Shown here: positions 13,691-22,635 of the stretch, one piece after another
Layout: each line of letters starts with the position of its first letter
Position numbering within the stretch: the first letter of the stretch is position 1
Assembly (NCBI RefSeq): GCF_001904615.1
Contig: NZ_MRBY01000020.1
Coordinates: forward strand, 846-64,845
Reading direction: 5' to 3'
Origin: [Limnothrix rosea] IAM M-220
GTDB lineage: Bacteria > Cyanobacteriota > Cyanobacteriia > Cyanobacteriales > MRBY01
Length of the DNA stretch: 64,000 nt
The notes under the pieces: model-generated
The model's database searches: none
Told to the model about the DNA's origin: nothing
The model's input: the letters and a program-made list of their open reading frames with translations, nothing else
Made by a program: the position numbers and the translations under genes

Positions 13691-14563
13691 ATGGTTGGGG
13701 AAATTTCTGCCCTCATTGCAGCAGGTATCTGGTCAGCTTCCGCGATCATTTATGACAAAATTCTTGTCACAGTAAAAATTTCAGGGACGTTAGTTAGTTT
13801 TTACCGTGGACTAGTAAGCCTGCCTTTTTTTGCTGTTAGCTTACTCATTTTCGACCCCCATCTGCCCCAGCTGAGTAGTCTCCATTGGTTTTATTTGGTG
13901 ATTAGCGCCATTTTGGGCATTACCATCGGCGACACCGCTTATTTTCTGTCGTTACAAGATGTCGGTGTGCGCAAAGCATTATTGCTGCAAACATTAACGC
14001 CGCTATTTGGGGCATTTTTTGCATGGGTGTTTCTCAAGGAAAGTCTTACTGTCTATGGGCTAATTGGCATTGCTCTGACCTTACTCGGCGTGGTGTGGGT
14101 GATCACTGAAAGGACAACGGCGGGGCGATCGCCTCATTTATTGCGAGGAAGTTTGTGGGGGATTTTATCCTGCGCAGCCCAAGGATTAGGGGCGATGTTT
14201 ATTCGAGATGTGCTGGAAAATAGCGACTTGAATTCCCTGTGGAGCAGCTCCCTACGGATGGTTTTGGGCACGGTCATTCTCGCCTTCTGGCTCGGCTACA
14301 AAGGTAATTTCACCCTCTCGGCTTTATCTTTTCCCCAGTGGCAAGCGATAACCGGGGCAGCCTTTGGCGGCTCTTTTGTTGGGCTGTGGCTCCATCAGAC
14401 GGCCTTTCAATTTGCGCCGGTCGGTATTGCGGCGACGCTACTTAGTACTTCACCTTTGTTTGCCGTGGGTATCAGTGTTTATCTACGCGAAAAAGTCACT
14501 TGGCGATCCCTCGGTGGTGTGGTGATTGCATTAGTGGGGATTGGTTTATTGCTCATCAGATAG
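13691..14563 (+). CDS. EamA/DMT-superfamily transporter
   Basis: 290 aa, about ten membrane helices in two EamA halves (roughly residues 2-135 and 150-288). Landmarks are the opening SALIAAGIWSASAIIYDK, the end-of-half-one motif TLTPLFGAFFAWVFLKE followed by LIGIALTLLGVVWV, and in half two LLSTSPLFAVGISVYLREK followed by GGVVIALVGIGLLL. The family exports or imports small metabolites and amino acids; the substrate cannot be deduced. Its 3' end overlaps the convergent minus-strand gene by 18 bases. Confidence 0.88.
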   Translation: MVGEISALIAAGIWSASAIIYDKILVTVKISGTLVSFYRGLVSLPFFAVSLLIFDPHLPQLSSLHWFYLVISAILGITIGDTAYFLSLQDVGVRKALLLQTLTPLFGAFFAWVFLKESLTVYGLIGIALTLLGVVWVITERTTAGRSPHLLRGSLWGILSCAAQGLGAMFIRDVLENSDLNSLWSSSLRMVLGTVILAFWLGYKGNFTLSALSFPQWQAITGAAFGGSFVGLWLHQTAFQFAPVGIAATLLSTSPLFAVGISVYLREKVTWRSLGGVVIALVGIGLLLIR

Positions 14564-15142
14564 GAGCATGGCGAGAAACACCCGACGTATTAACCTTATA
14601 TTCACTTGTTTGAAAATTTGTTGCTGTTCCGCAACTAATGACGACTTGGTCGTTGGGATGGCAGCAAAGCGATACAGTAATTTTTCGCGCCAAGACAAAT
14701 TGACGTTGTAGGTAATTTCAGGCAACAGAAAATTAGGGTTAAAACGAGGATCTTGAGCACAGTCCATCAAAAATTTAGAATAGGCATCCAGATCAAACGG
14801 AACATCCGACGTTTCTAAAATCACCCTCGATAAGCCACGTTTTTCTTGGGTTAGCCCCTGGGGCAATTGCTCTCCCGGCTCCCAAGTTAAACCTAATGCG
14901 GTGTAACCTCCGATCGCCGGTAATTTTTCTGGAAATAGGCGCGGCAAAACCACCCAAATCCAGAAAGGTACACCCGTGGTTCCCGCTCTGAAAGTTGTTG
15001 CATTTTGATAATAAGCCGCTGAAACTGGGCGACTGTAGTCACGCAAACTTCCTAAAAATGACAACGAGAGTATCAACACAATTGCTATTAGCGTCGCGGC
15101 GATCGCCACCTGCCATGATTTTTTAAACTTGATGCTGTTCAT
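14546..15142 (-). CDS. Membrane-anchored haem-less paralogue of the neighbouring cytochrome's N-terminal domain
   Basis: 198 aa. A membrane helix (about residues 11-31, QVAIAATLIAIVLILSLSFLG) anchors a periplasmic domain. Its sequence parallels the upstream cytochrome point by point: FRAGTTGVPFWIWVVLPRLFPEKLP against FRYGTIGG..GIPYWLWKALPVVFEDRLP, then FDLDAYSKFLMDCAQDPRFN against VNLQGYIQFLTAIAPDERFS, and LSWREKLLYRFAAIPTTK against LNPLEKLVYKFFVIPQAR. The stretch that holds CATCH in the cytochrome is missing, and there is no CXXCH anywhere. Starts 3 bases after the cytochrome's stop, so the two form an operon. Function unknown; perhaps an accessory or regulatory subunit. Confidence 0.75.
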   Translation of the reverse strand: MNSIKFKKSWQVAIAATLIAIVLILSLSFLGSLRDYSRPVSAAYYQNATTFRAGTTGVPFWIWVVLPRLFPEKLPAIGGYTALGLTWEPGEQLPQGLTQEKRGLSRVILETSDVPFDLDAYSKFLMDCAQDPRFNPNFLLPEITYNVNLSWREKLLYRFAAIPTTKSSLVAEQQQIFKQVNIRLIRRVFLAMLLSDEQ

Positions 15143-15145
15143 GGG

Positions 15146-16672
15146 TTAAAGGGTTTTGAGATATTCAATAAGAGCCGTTTTATCAGAGTCGCTGAGGGCT
15201 GTGCCGTAGAGATGACCGCCATTGCCGTTGCCTCCTAAGCTGGTGTCGTACTGAAAAAACTGTTTGCTATTTTCCCCAGCCACCGTGGTGACAAAGCCCA
15301 TATTTTCTTGGTCATACACGTCATAGCCCCGGTAAAAGGTGGTGGGACGTTCTGCGGGGGGATTCAGCAAGTCGCGCATGGTTGGCACAGAGCCATTGTG
15401 GAGATAGGGCGATCGCAACCAAATGCCATCTAGGGGGGCGCTGGCATAGCCATTAGTTTTGCGGTAATTTTTGAAACGTTTATCCTCACCGCGATAGGTG
15501 ATGTCGCTAAACAATAAATATTGGTTAGAGGTCAGGTCATAGGTATAGGAATCCAGTCTGCCACGGTCTGTTTGAATGTCACCAATCGGTATAACCGTTT
15601 CTAAATTGAGCTTATCGGGACGATTGAGAATGTCATGGCAACTGGCACAATTCGCTTCAAAAATTGGTTTCCCTTGCGCCACTAAATCTTGATTGATTGC
15701 ATAGGGATATTGGGGAGCTGGTAAATCATTAAGCCACTGTTGCAGTCGATAGAGTGAGTCAAAATTCAAATTCCCCGGAGCAACTAATGCTAAAGCTGCC
15801 GTGCGATTCCGTTCATCAGGATTGTTATTATTGCCATCCCAATGGAGGTACATACCAGCGCGAGGCCCTTGGTTCCAAATGCTGGGATAGTCAGCGATGC
15901 CATTGAGTTGTTCTGGCGGCAGCAACTCCACCGGAAAACCAAAACGACGAGTTTTGTAAGAAGTAAAAGTATCAACACGCCCCGGCCCATACTGCGACTG
16001 ACGATCCATAAATGCCAGATCAAGGCGCTCCCGCAGCAGTTGTTCACGGGCTTGGGGAATTACAAAAAATTTGTAGACGAGTTTTTCGAGGGGATTTAGA
16101 TTCGCCCCCATCTCGGCAATGTAGGGCATGATATGTTTTGCCGAAAATCTTTCGTCAGGGGCGATCGCCGTCAAAAATTGAATATAGCCCTGTAAATTAA
16201 CGTTATGTCCCGGCATGGTAGAGATCAAGGTGACGGGAGCAGTCGGCGTTTCCCGCAATTTACCGACATGGCAAGTGGCGCAATTTTGAGTGACGACATC
16301 AAGACCAAGGGCGGGCAAAATTTGACGGGACGATTTCGCAAAACCGATGGGTAAATCGTGGTCAGGCTCCTGCATAAATCCAAAGGCTGTCATCCCTTCG
16401 CCGGGCAGATGATCTGGAGGTAGCCGATCTTCAAAAACGACGGGCAAAGCTTTCCATAGCCAGTAGGGAATACCATCTGTACTTTCGCCGCCAATAGTGC
16501 CGTAACGGAAATGTTCGTCAATATCAGCATAGTAGGCAGGTCGACTCGTTAGGAAAGGCCAGAGTAACCACAAGACTAAGGCGAGTAATACCGCAATAAT
16601 AGCTAGCAAAATTCGTTTTTTAGCCGCACGATGGGGAGGGCGATCGCCTAATTTTTGAGGGTCATTTATCAC
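15146..16672 (-). CDS. Membrane-anchored di-haem c-type cytochrome
   Basis: About 508 aa from GTG 16672, chosen because GGAGG lies 10 bases upstream; the open frame extends to a TTG at 16711. One N-terminal membrane helix (about residues 22-42) anchors a periplasmic protein. Two haem-binding CXXCH motifs are present: NCATCHVGK in the first half and NCASCHDI in the second. The second half (PYAINQDLVAQGKPIFEAN, then GIWLRSPYLHNGSVPTMRDLL) resembles the cytochrome c peroxidase/RoxA-like fold, where the HNGS segment is typical. Substrate unknown; a role in periplasmic electron transfer or oxygenation is inference. Followed at 3 bases by its haem-less relative. Confidence 0.85.
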   Translation of the reverse strand: MINDPQKLGDRPPHRAAKKRILLAIIAVLLALVLWLLWPFLTSRPAYYADIDEHFRYGTIGGESTDGIPYWLWKALPVVFEDRLPPDHLPGEGMTAFGFMQEPDHDLPIGFAKSSRQILPALGLDVVTQNCATCHVGKLRETPTAPVTLISTMPGHNVNLQGYIQFLTAIAPDERFSAKHIMPYIAEMGANLNPLEKLVYKFFVIPQAREQLLRERLDLAFMDRQSQYGPGRVDTFTSYKTRRFGFPVELLPPEQLNGIADYPSIWNQGPRAGMYLHWDGNNNNPDERNRTAALALVAPGNLNFDSLYRLQQWLNDLPAPQYPYAINQDLVAQGKPIFEANCASCHDILNRPDKLNLETVIPIGDIQTDRGRLDSYTYDLTSNQYLLFSDITYRGEDKRFKNYRKTNGYASAPLDGIWLRSPYLHNGSVPTMRDLLNPPAERPTTFYRGYDVYDQENMGFVTTVAGENSKQFFQYDTSLGGNGNGGHLYGTALSDSDKTALIEYLKTL

Positions 16673-16963
16673 CTTGAGAAATCCTCCACGATTTGGCAAA
16701 ACCAAGATCAAGCAGCCTTTCCCAAAATCTAACCAAGGAAATTTTAACCGTCAATTTTGACACCGTAATCTGTCAGATCTTGCAATAAATCCCCACATTA
16801 CTTGAACTGTTTTAGTGCAAAATCCCAGCCAACAAAAACTGTTTAAATAGCCAAAGGATCACGCCCGAACATTTAACTAGTTGCAAATATCCATGACATA
16901 AATCCTCGAGGGTCGGCGATCGCCCTATGGTAGAGACAGGGTCAGTCCACCCCTCGGATGTAA

Positions 16964-20181: not shown

Positions 20182-22635
20182 GTGGTGAATGTGAGCAATC
20201 TATTAGAGAAAAACTCCAGTTCCAATACATTAATTATCGGCAGTATTATTCAAGGGCGTTATCAAGTTCTGAGCAAGCTCAAGGGTGGCGCATTGTCGCG
20301 GACTTATCTCGTGCAGGATTTGTCCCAGCCCAATGAACCGAAATGCGTTCTGAAACATTACCCCTACAACAAAGAGATTCCCCGTCTGTACAAGACCAAT
20401 ATGCGTCTGTTTCTCAAGGAAGCGAAGCATTTACAGGTGCTCAGCGTTCATCCCCAGATTCCCCGCCTTGTGGATTATTTTGGCATTACGGATCAGGGCT
20501 GGTATTTAGTGCAAGATCTCGTTGAAGGCAAACTTGTCAACAATATTTTGCCCATGAGCGAGTACAGCGATAATTGCTGGAGTGTGTATGAGGTTGCTCG
20601 CTTTATCCACGACATTTGTGAGACGTTGCAGTTTATCCACAGCCAAAAGATTATTCACTGTGACCTAAAGCCGAACAACATTATTAGCCGTGCCACGGAT
20701 GGTCGCCTCGTGGTTATTGATTTTGGTTCAGCGCAGTATATTCCGGGCTTCCAGAGCAATGAAGATACCTCCATCACGTCGCTACGGACAAAAATTACTG
20801 TTAGTCCGTCGGGCTATTTAGCGCCAGAACAGATGAATGGTCAGCCGCAACCTTGTAGTGATTTTTATGCATTGGGCGTTATGGCGATTCAGGCATGGAC
20901 TGGTCTTGACCCTGCTCGCATCAAAAAAGATAGTCACACGGGGGAGTTTGTTTGGGATCAGTATGTCAAGATTGAACACCCTGAGGCTTGTCGCCGCCTA
21001 GTGGAAATCGTTACACGGATGGTGAAACCGGATATTGGCGATCGCTTCCGCCATGCGAGGGATCTTATTGGCGAGCTGGATGCTTTTATCCATACCTTTG
21101 ATGAAGAACAAGATGATGTCCCCCTCGATTACGGCAAAATTTCCTTTGATGATTCCACGTTATTTAAGAAGCCAGAAGAACTACCGGAGGATCTCCAAGG
21201 GCCTATTGAAGCTCAAAAACGACCCAAACCCCAATCTCTAGAGGAGACTATTTTGCCACCAGCCATGGCTAAGGATACCTACATCCAAAAGGACGATGAG
21301 GATTTTTATAAGCAAACCTTTATTCAGGGTGAAGATGAATCTCTTGATTTTGATGACTCTTTCGCTGCAGAACTGGAGCATAGCGATGACATTGTTCAAG
21401 AGGCTGAAAGTACGTCAGAACTTAGCGCCAATGATTTACCGCTCAAACTCAAGCGACCGAAGTCTGGCCCGAAGAAGTTGCCTGTATTTGCCTTGATTAG
21501 TATCAGCATCGTTATTGTGAATGGTCTATTGATTGCCTTTGGCTTGCAACATCTCATTAAAAATATGGCGACGGGGGATGTACCCGAGCCGGGTGATGAT
21601 TTTCAGCGGGCGCAGGATGCCTATGCCCAAGGGGATCTACCTGAGGCGATCGCCATCGCGAAGGCCATTCCCCAACAAAGCCCGGCCTACCAACAAGCCC
21701 AAGAAAATTTAGCCCAGTGGCAAGGGGAACTTCAGCAAGGTCAAGGTGAAACAGCAGCAGAAACCACACCGACAGAAACATCAGAACCAGAAGCTATAGC
21801 AGTAGCCACCACAGAAATAGAATCTCCAGCTGTTGCAGAAGCACCGAAACCCACACCTGCCCAAAACGAATTCCAACGGGCACAGAATGTTTATGCCCAA
21901 GGCAATTTACCGGAAGCCATTAATATTGCCAAAGCGATTCCCCAAGGTGCACCAGATTACCAAGATGCCCAGACAAATCTTGTGAACTGGGAAGGGGAAC
22001 TTCAAGCGCAAACAGCAAAAATCGAGGGGATTCAGGCAGCTCACGAGGCGCAAAACTGGCAAGACGTAGTCGCCAAGGGCAAAGAACTCAAAGATCCAGC
22101 CCTCAAGGAACAAGTTAGCCCACTGATCGAGGCCGCACAATTTGAAATTGATGTGGCAGCCTACACCAGAGTGCAAAAGGCCTTCGATTTAGCGACAAAC
22201 TATAAGTTCAATGAGGCTCTAGCAACCTTAGCCGAAGCCCCGCCTAATAGTAAGTTTGCCAATGTCATTACAGACAAGCTCGCGGAATATGAAGGCAAAA
22301 AAGCCATTCGTAATCATTTTTATCTCCAGCAGGCGGTTAATCATGCGGAAGCGCGGGAGTTTAGCGAAGCGGTGGTTTTCCTTGAGCAGATTTCTGATGA
22401 CTCCAAGCACCATGAGCTAGCGGAGGTCAAAATTGTTGAATACAGTGAAAAGCAAAAAATCAAAGAAGCCTATGAACGGTGGTCTGCAGCTCAAGCAAAG
22501 CAGCAAAACAATGATGCCAGCAGCAATAAGGTTGAGTTTACAGAAGGTTCACCTTCGGCAATGCGTCGGCAATTGCAGTCCTCTGAAATGGTGAGTCAAG
22601 TTAATCCGGGTATGGTGTTACAGCACATTACCTAG
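20182..22635 (+). CDS. Membrane Ser/Thr protein kinase with periplasmic tandem repeats
   Basis: 817 aa, GTG start (in-frame GTG codons also at 20185 and 20191). A Hanks-type kinase domain covers about residues 27-300: glycine-rich loop variant LKGGALSRTYLV, Lys58 in CVLKHY, catalytic IIHCDLKPNNI with Asp161, and DFGSAQ with Asp180. The HCD in place of HRD occurs in several cyanobacterial kinases and suggests loss of activation-loop control (inference). An acidic linker follows, then one membrane helix (about 433-455). Outside it, two near-identical units (FQRAQDAYAQGDLPEAIAIA and FQRAQNVYAQGNLPEAINIA) and further TPR-like helices run to the end. Probably senses an envelope signal. Confidence 0.9.
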   Translation: MVNVSNLLEKNSSSNTLIIGSIIQGRYQVLSKLKGGALSRTYLVQDLSQPNEPKCVLKHYPYNKEIPRLYKTNMRLFLKEAKHLQVLSVHPQIPRLVDYFGITDQGWYLVQDLVEGKLVNNILPMSEYSDNCWSVYEVARFIHDICETLQFIHSQKIIHCDLKPNNIISRATDGRLVVIDFGSAQYIPGFQSNEDTSITSLRTKITVSPSGYLAPEQMNGQPQPCSDFYALGVMAIQAWTGLDPARIKKDSHTGEFVWDQYVKIEHPEACRRLVEIVTRMVKPDIGDRFRHARDLIGELDAFIHTFDEEQDDVPLDYGKISFDDSTLFKKPEELPEDLQGPIEAQKRPKPQSLEETILPPAMAKDTYIQKDDEDFYKQTFIQGEDESLDFDDSFAAELEHSDDIVQEAESTSELSANDLPLKLKRPKSGPKKLPVFALISISIVIVNGLLIAFGLQHLIKNMATGDVPEPGDDFQRAQDAYAQGDLPEAIAIAKAIPQQSPAYQQAQENLAQWQGELQQGQGETAAETTPTETSEPEAIAVATTEIESPAVAEAPKPTPAQNEFQRAQNVYAQGNLPEAINIAKAIPQGAPDYQDAQTNLVNWEGELQAQTAKIEGIQAAHEAQNWQDVVAKGKELKDPALKEQVSPLIEAAQFEIDVAAYTRVQKAFDLATNYKFNEALATLAEAPPNSKFANVITDKLAEYEGKKAIRNHFYLQQAVNHAEAREFSEAVVFLEQISDDSKHHELAEVKIVEYSEKQKIKEAYERWSAAQAKQQNNDASSNKVEFTEGSPSAMRRQLQSSEMVSQVNPGMVLQHIT

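What the first reader, a model, noticed from the sequence alone, without database searches (positions are those of the whole stretch)
14546..16672. Haem-less paralogue paired with its di-haem cytochrome
The 198-aa protein repeats the N-terminal domain of the adjacent cytochrome almost landmark for landmark (GIPYWLW/GVPFWIW, then DRLP/EKLP, DERF/DPRF, LEKLVYKF/WREKLLYRF), but the segment carrying CXXCH is gone. The two are separated by 3 bases. A tandem duplication followed by loss of the haem site suggests a non-catalytic subunit that may form a heterodimer. I know of no description of such a pair.
Basis: partly seen in the sequence, partly recalled or inferred. Interest (0 to 1): 0.65.

Follow-up and report, generated by a model that had tools for sequence, protein, structure and literature searches.

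The report
Haem-stripped stub of paired cytochrome
Next to a normal two-haem enzyme sits a shortened, haem-free version of what in most other bacteria is a second full two-haem enzyme of an ancient gene pair; similar shortened versions occur in other lineages, so one half of this pair seems able to shed its chemistry.

Summary
In detail: the 198-aa protein (14546-15142, -) is homologous to the N-terminal domain of the adjacent di-haem cytochrome (BLASTP E = 5e-17) and has no CXXCH. The history differs from the one proposed. It is not a fresh copy of its neighbour. It is the orthologue of "B", the second member of an ancient tandem pair A-B of RoxA-like cytochromes found in Cyanobacteria, Acidobacteriota and Pseudomonadota. 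B is normally about 480-510 aa with two haem sites. Here B lost its C-terminal half, where the segment abuts the neighbouring EamA gene, plus an in-frame stretch carrying the first haem site. A Prochloraceae genome holds another haem-free short B, probably an independent loss. One-haem short Bs occur in Nostoc sp. FACHB-152, a second cyanobacterium and Acidobacteriota-type genomes; some cyanobacteria have A with no adjacent B. Conserved neighbours (flavin oxidoreductase, lipoxygenase, patatin) point to lipid oxidation. The nearest studied pair is Pseudomonas aeruginosa oleate-diol synthase PA2077/PA2078, in which PA2078's haem sites were reported dispensable. I favour a membrane-anchored, non-catalytic remnant kept as partner of A (about 0.5) over simple decay (about 0.35). 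No complex could be modelled.

The parts
14546..15142 (-). short haem-free B ('stub'), 198 aa: N-terminal transmembrane helix plus N-domain of the B cytochrome; C-terminal half absent
15035..15124 (-). predicted membrane-anchor helix of the stub (residues 7-36)
   Evidence: AlphaFold model, mean pLDDT 83
14821..14822 (-). point (after residue 107) where about 22 residues carrying the first CXXCH are missing relative to full B; the model shows the flanking strands joined as a hairpin (97-102/104-109)
14546..14563 (-). last codons and stop of the stub, antisense to the 3' end of the EamA gene: stop codon supplied by the neighbour
15146..16672 (-). A: RoxA-like di-haem cytochrome, 508 aa from ATG (TTG at 16711 gives 521 aa), membrane anchor at N terminus
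   Evidence: PF21419, NF040606; RoxA 4b2n by sequence and fold
16268..16282 (-). A, first CXXCH (CATCH, residues 131-135), equivalent of the haem site missing from the stub
15635..15649 (-). A, second CXXCH (CASCH, residues 342-346)
14563..16878 (.). segment absent from the syntenic place in a same-genus genome (G390), where the matching sequences are about 36 bp apart: acquired here or lost there

Best explanation
The pair is a reduced form of an ancient two-gene cytochrome unit, A-B. A is intact and is the probable enzyme: a membrane-anchored, RoxA-like di-haem oxygenase or peroxidase, likely acting on lipids. B, normally a second di-haem enzyme, is cut down to its membrane helix and N-domain and has lost the haem that is the oxygen site in RoxA. 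Shown: orthology to B, truncation at the EamA boundary, in-frame removal of the haem segment, parallel reduced Bs elsewhere. Supported but not proven: the stub is still under selection.
For: Orthology: the stub lies in the B clade (100/99). Ancient pairing: of 74 B loci, 72 hold A, almost always A then B on one strand. Selection on the stub: outside the haem segments 30 of 35 nearly invariant positions are kept but only 23/57 and 13/41 of the more variable ones, similar to functional full-length relatives of like divergence; in the haem segments only 2 of 10 are kept (P = 3e-4 against uniform decay under a simple model). An intact 198-codon frame is unlikely after neutral divergence of this size (simulated P about 0-0.02 at 55-70% retained identity). 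All length changes are in frame. Parallel cases: haem-free short B in Prochloraceae MO_167.B51, inside an operon-like cluster; one-haem short B in Nostoc sp. FACHB-152 and G054, dN/dS about 0.33 against 0.09 for A; one-haem short B in seven Acidobacteriota-type loci. A is intact: 137 of 149 positions conserved in at least 95% of other A proteins are kept. The stub is predicted well folded (pLDDT 83).
Against: No complex was or could be modelled. The stub's branch is very long (1.4-1.7 against a median of about 0.15). No second genome with this same stub was found, so selection cannot be timed to after the haem loss. The truncation coincides with the edge of the inserted segment, as an accident would. 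The Prochloraceae stub does not pass the same conservation test (P = 0.46). Several cyanobacteria have A with no adjacent B, so B is dispensable there.
Confidence: 0.5

Rival explanations
1. Decaying remnant: B was broken when the segment joined the EamA gene, later lost its haem segment, and is on its way out; A works alone, as in lineages with no adjacent B. Any protein made has no role.
For: Truncation lies at the junction and the stop codon is borrowed from antisense EamA; very long branch; A occurs without adjacent B in six genomes; the usual neighbours are not beside the pair, and the flavin oxidoreductase was not found in this genome.
Against: Intact frame, in-frame indels only, selective retention of conserved non-haem positions; similar stubs elsewhere, one pair of them under purifying selection.
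Confidence: 0.35
2. The stub still catalyses a haem-independent step, as reported for PA2078 of P. aeruginosa, where mutation of either haem histidine left hydroperoxide-to-diol conversion unchanged.
For: PA2078 H130Q and H365Q kept activity while PA2077 needed both haems (PMC4496055); lipoxygenase lies next to many A-B pairs and a lipoxygenase gene exists in this genome.
Against: The stub also lacks the whole C-terminal half; orthology with PA2078 was not tested; no catalytic set is evident in what remains.
Confidence: 0.08
3. Sequencing or assembly error hides a normal B.
For: Draft genome of 92 contigs.
Against: The gap is in frame, no CXXCH in other frames, no other fragment of B found in the genome, the 3' end runs straight into an intact EamA gene.
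Confidence: 0.02

Closest known systems
Pseudomonas aeruginosa oleate-diol synthase pair PA2077/PA2078 (FadCcp subfamily; PMC4496055)
   Same: Tandem pair of RoxA-like di-haem proteins in one operon; one partner needs its haems, the other was reported not to; exported or membrane-related; lipid oxidation.
   Different: Both P. aeruginosa proteins keep both CXXCH motifs and full length (about 67-69 kDa); gene order is PA2078 then PA2077; whether the duplication is the same one is untested; substrate here unknown.
Rubber oxygenases RoxA/RoxB (PF21419; PDB 4b2n; PMC6797691)
   Same: A matches by sequence and fold, with two CXXCH, the PYLHNGSVP motif and the C-terminal GGH region.
   Different: A scores far below the RoxA/RoxB/RoxC family cut-offs and is shorter, with a membrane anchor; no paired stub is known to me for RoxA.
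NCBIfam NF040606, di-heme-cytochrome C peroxidase
   Same: A scores 199.5 against a cut-off of 150.
   Different: The stub scores nothing; the name is an annotation, not a tested activity.
One-haem short B proteins of Acidobacteriota-type genomes, Nostoc sp. FACHB-152 and G054 (found here)
   Same: Same N-domain, same place after A, no C-terminal haem domain.
   Different: They keep the first CXXCH and the YGS-type loop before the PYW motif.

Membership tests
RoxA-like di-haem cytochrome (PF21419 / NF040606), protein A | family profile over curated cut-off | tested here: met
   PF21419 57.4 bits (cut-off 26.7), NF040606 199.5 (cut-off 150):
RoxA-like di-haem cytochrome (PF21419 / NF040606), protein A | two CXXCH and PYLHNGSVP motif | tested here: met
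RoxA-like di-haem cytochrome (PF21419 / NF040606), protein A | RoxA fold | tested here: met
   Foldseek 4b2n E 7.5e-8, the only significant hit, though the model is of modest quality (pLDDT 67.5):
RoxA-like di-haem cytochrome, short protein | two CXXCH haem sites and RoxA-like C-terminal domain | tested here: not met
   no CXXCH; no Pfam or NCBIfam match at E 1
B clade of the A-B pair | phylogenetic placement with full-length B, position directly after A | tested here: met
   100/99 support separating A and B; adjacent, same strand
Rubber oxygenase RoxA/RoxB/RoxC | NCBIfam cut-offs (900-1000 bits), protein A | tested here: not met
   best 78 bits
FadCcp oleate-diol synthase (PA2077/PA2078) | tandem di-haem pair, both with two CXXCH | tested here: not met
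   pair present, but the second member has no CXXCH
FadCcp oleate-diol synthase (PA2077/PA2078) | shared duplication or orthology with PA2077 and PA2078 | not tested
   sequences not reached through the tools; a class-wide search gave no pair recognisable by the published motifs
FadCcp oleate-diol synthase (PA2077/PA2078) | fatty-acid dioxygenase and hydroperoxide-diol activities | not testable with these tools
   needs enzyme assay

The most novel reading that the evidence does not exclude
The B partner of this widespread cytochrome pair has repeatedly been turned into a haem-free or one-haem membrane stub that is kept as a scaffold or regulatory subunit of A: repeated evolution of a pseudo-cytochrome subunit from an active di-haem enzyme.
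Probability: 0.4. Interest if true: 0.6.

Novelty: new variant of a known kind. Interest (0 to 1): 0.45.

Why it matters
The A-B pair, with its flavin oxidoreductase, small membrane protein, lipoxygenase and patatin neighbours, looks like a widespread bacterial lipid-oxidation cluster; I found no description of its chemistry outside Pseudomonas. The graded series in B (two haems, one haem, none, no adjacent B) is a natural mutagenesis experiment. It bears on the reported but unexplained finding that one partner of the Pseudomonas pair works without its haems.

Tried and rejected
Fresh duplication of A as origin: rejected by the tree and by better matches to full-length B. Frameshift hiding the haem site: rejected. 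A shared haem-free ancestor for the window and Prochloraceae stubs: the B tree cannot decide (p = 0.596), but their A partners are not sisters (p = 0.0001), so independent loss is favoured if A and B travel together. Stepwise truncation then haem loss in a Nostoc/Prochloraceae line: compatible, not shown. Fold search with the stub gave no significant PDB match; this says nothing about a new fold. The first scan of named genomes with the stub alone found nothing. PA2077/PA2078 could not be fetched to place them in the tree. A literature search for haem-less paralogues of cytochrome c peroxidases found nothing.

Full report
What is there. On the minus strand the window holds a 508-aa cytochrome (A, 15146-16672 from its ATG) with two CXXCH motifs, followed after 3 bases by a 198-aa protein (14546-15142) with none. 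BLASTP aligns the short protein to the N-terminal domain of A with E = 5e-17. A is a RoxA-like di-haem cytochrome (PF21419 57.4 bits; NF040606 199.5 bits). RoxA (4b2n) is its best match among solved structures by sequence (E 6e-11) and the only significant one by predicted structure. The short protein matches no Pfam or NCBIfam model.

Where the short protein comes from. In relatives, A is followed on the same strand by a second complete di-haem cytochrome, B, of about 480-510 aa. Of 74 B loci in named genomes, 72 hold A, almost always upstream on the same strand, either adjacent or with one small gene between; they span Cyanobacteria, Acidobacteriota and Pseudomonadota, and rhizobial plasmids show the same order. 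In a tree of the N-domains the short protein sits in the B clade (100/99), not beside its neighbour. It is therefore a reduced orthologue of B.

What was lost. Compared with full B, the stub lacks the whole C-terminal half with the second haem and the RoxA-like motif. It also lacks an in-frame stretch of about 22 residues with the first CXXCH. A conserved KYGSIG-type loop, kept in the haem-bearing A and B proteins aligned here, is eroded in both haem-free stubs. The model of the stub is good (pLDDT 83): an N-terminal membrane helix and the helices of the N-domain, with strands around the missing haem segment joined as a hairpin. In RoxA the N-terminal haem is the oxygen-binding active site (PMC6797691), so the stub should be unable to do that chemistry.

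How it was lost. In a genome of the same genus (G390) the genes on either side are syntenic, but the sequences matching EamA and the upstream flank of the 409-aa gene are only about 36 bp apart and the A-stub segment is absent. The shared sequence ends at the EamA stop region (about 14556-14563), where the stub also ends; its last codons and stop are antisense to EamA. The truncation therefore lies at the edge of the inserted (or, in G390, deleted) segment. No other piece of B was found in the genome. The removal of the haem segment is a separate, in-frame event.

Is it unique? No. Prochloraceae MO_167.B51 has a haem-free short B directly after A, between a flavin oxidoreductase-A unit and a GMC oxidoreductase. 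Nostoc sp. FACHB-152 and genome G054 have a short B with one haem; dN/dS between them is about 0.33 (A: 0.09), so that form is under purifying selection, more relaxed than A. Seven Acidobacteriota-type loci (one filed as Rhodanobacteraceae, one as an unclassified bacterium) have a short one-haem B beside a long A fusion. Six cyanobacterial genomes have flavin oxidoreductase-A-membrane protein with no B beside them. The A partners of the two haem-free stubs are not sisters (AU p = 0.0001), which favours independent haem loss if A and B are inherited together; the B tree itself cannot decide (p = 0.596).

Is the stub kept by selection? For: outside the haem segments it keeps 30 of 35 nearly invariant positions while diverging at the variable ones, as functional relatives do; neutral simulations make an intact frame unlikely at this divergence; indels are in frame. 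Against: a very long branch, no second copy of the same stub for a direct test, and the possibility that much of the divergence preceded the haem loss. The Prochloraceae stub does not pass the same test. I put retained function at about 0.5 and decay at about 0.35.

What the pair may do. Neighbours of A-B in relatives are an NADH:flavin oxidoreductase (52 of 74 loci), a small membrane protein (45), lipoxygenase (22), and in some patatin or a GMC oxidoreductase. This suggests oxidation of membrane-derived lipids (inference). In the window the pair stands alone; a lipoxygenase gene exists elsewhere in the genome and the flavin oxidoreductase was not found (that search had no positive control).

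Comparison with the known. The closest studied pair is P. aeruginosa PA2077/PA2078, RoxA-like di-haem enzymes making oleate-derived oxylipins (PMC4496055, PMC5155153, PMC6377657). There both haem histidines of PA2077 are needed, while PA2078 kept activity when either was mutated. The window shows what such a dispensable partner could become. Whether PA2077/PA2078 descend from the same duplication was not tested.

Verdict. New variant of a known kind, moderate interest.

Noticed in passing
L096, L092, L128, L153, L196, L197: Conserved cluster flavin oxidoreductase (PF00724) - A - small membrane protein - B - lipoxygenase / patatin / GMC oxidoreductase in Cyanobacteria and on rhizobial plasmids: looks like a lipid-oxidation pathway for which I found no description.
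   Followed up: partly
L125:506-3844, L139:843-3818, L142:787-3813, L151:926-3808: In Acidobacteriota-type genomes A is the C-terminal part of a roughly 960-1150 aa ORF that begins with a membrane region and a domain without a Pfam match, beside a short one-haem B or a 393-417 aa B that keeps both haems.
   Followed up: partly
L059:3166-5178: A membrane domain like the small cluster protein is fused in one ORF to a single A/B-type di-haem cytochrome (G398).
   Followed up: no
L228-L233: Six cyanobacterial genomes hold flavin oxidoreductase-A-membrane protein without B; in four of them the membrane protein ORF is about twice as long (284-289 aa).
   Followed up: partly
window 14546-14563: The stub and the EamA gene converge and overlap by 18 bases, so each carries the other's antisense at its 3' end.
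   Followed up: yes
window 20182-22635: 817-aa protein kinase-like ORF with a repeated tail region; not part of the finding.
   Followed up: no
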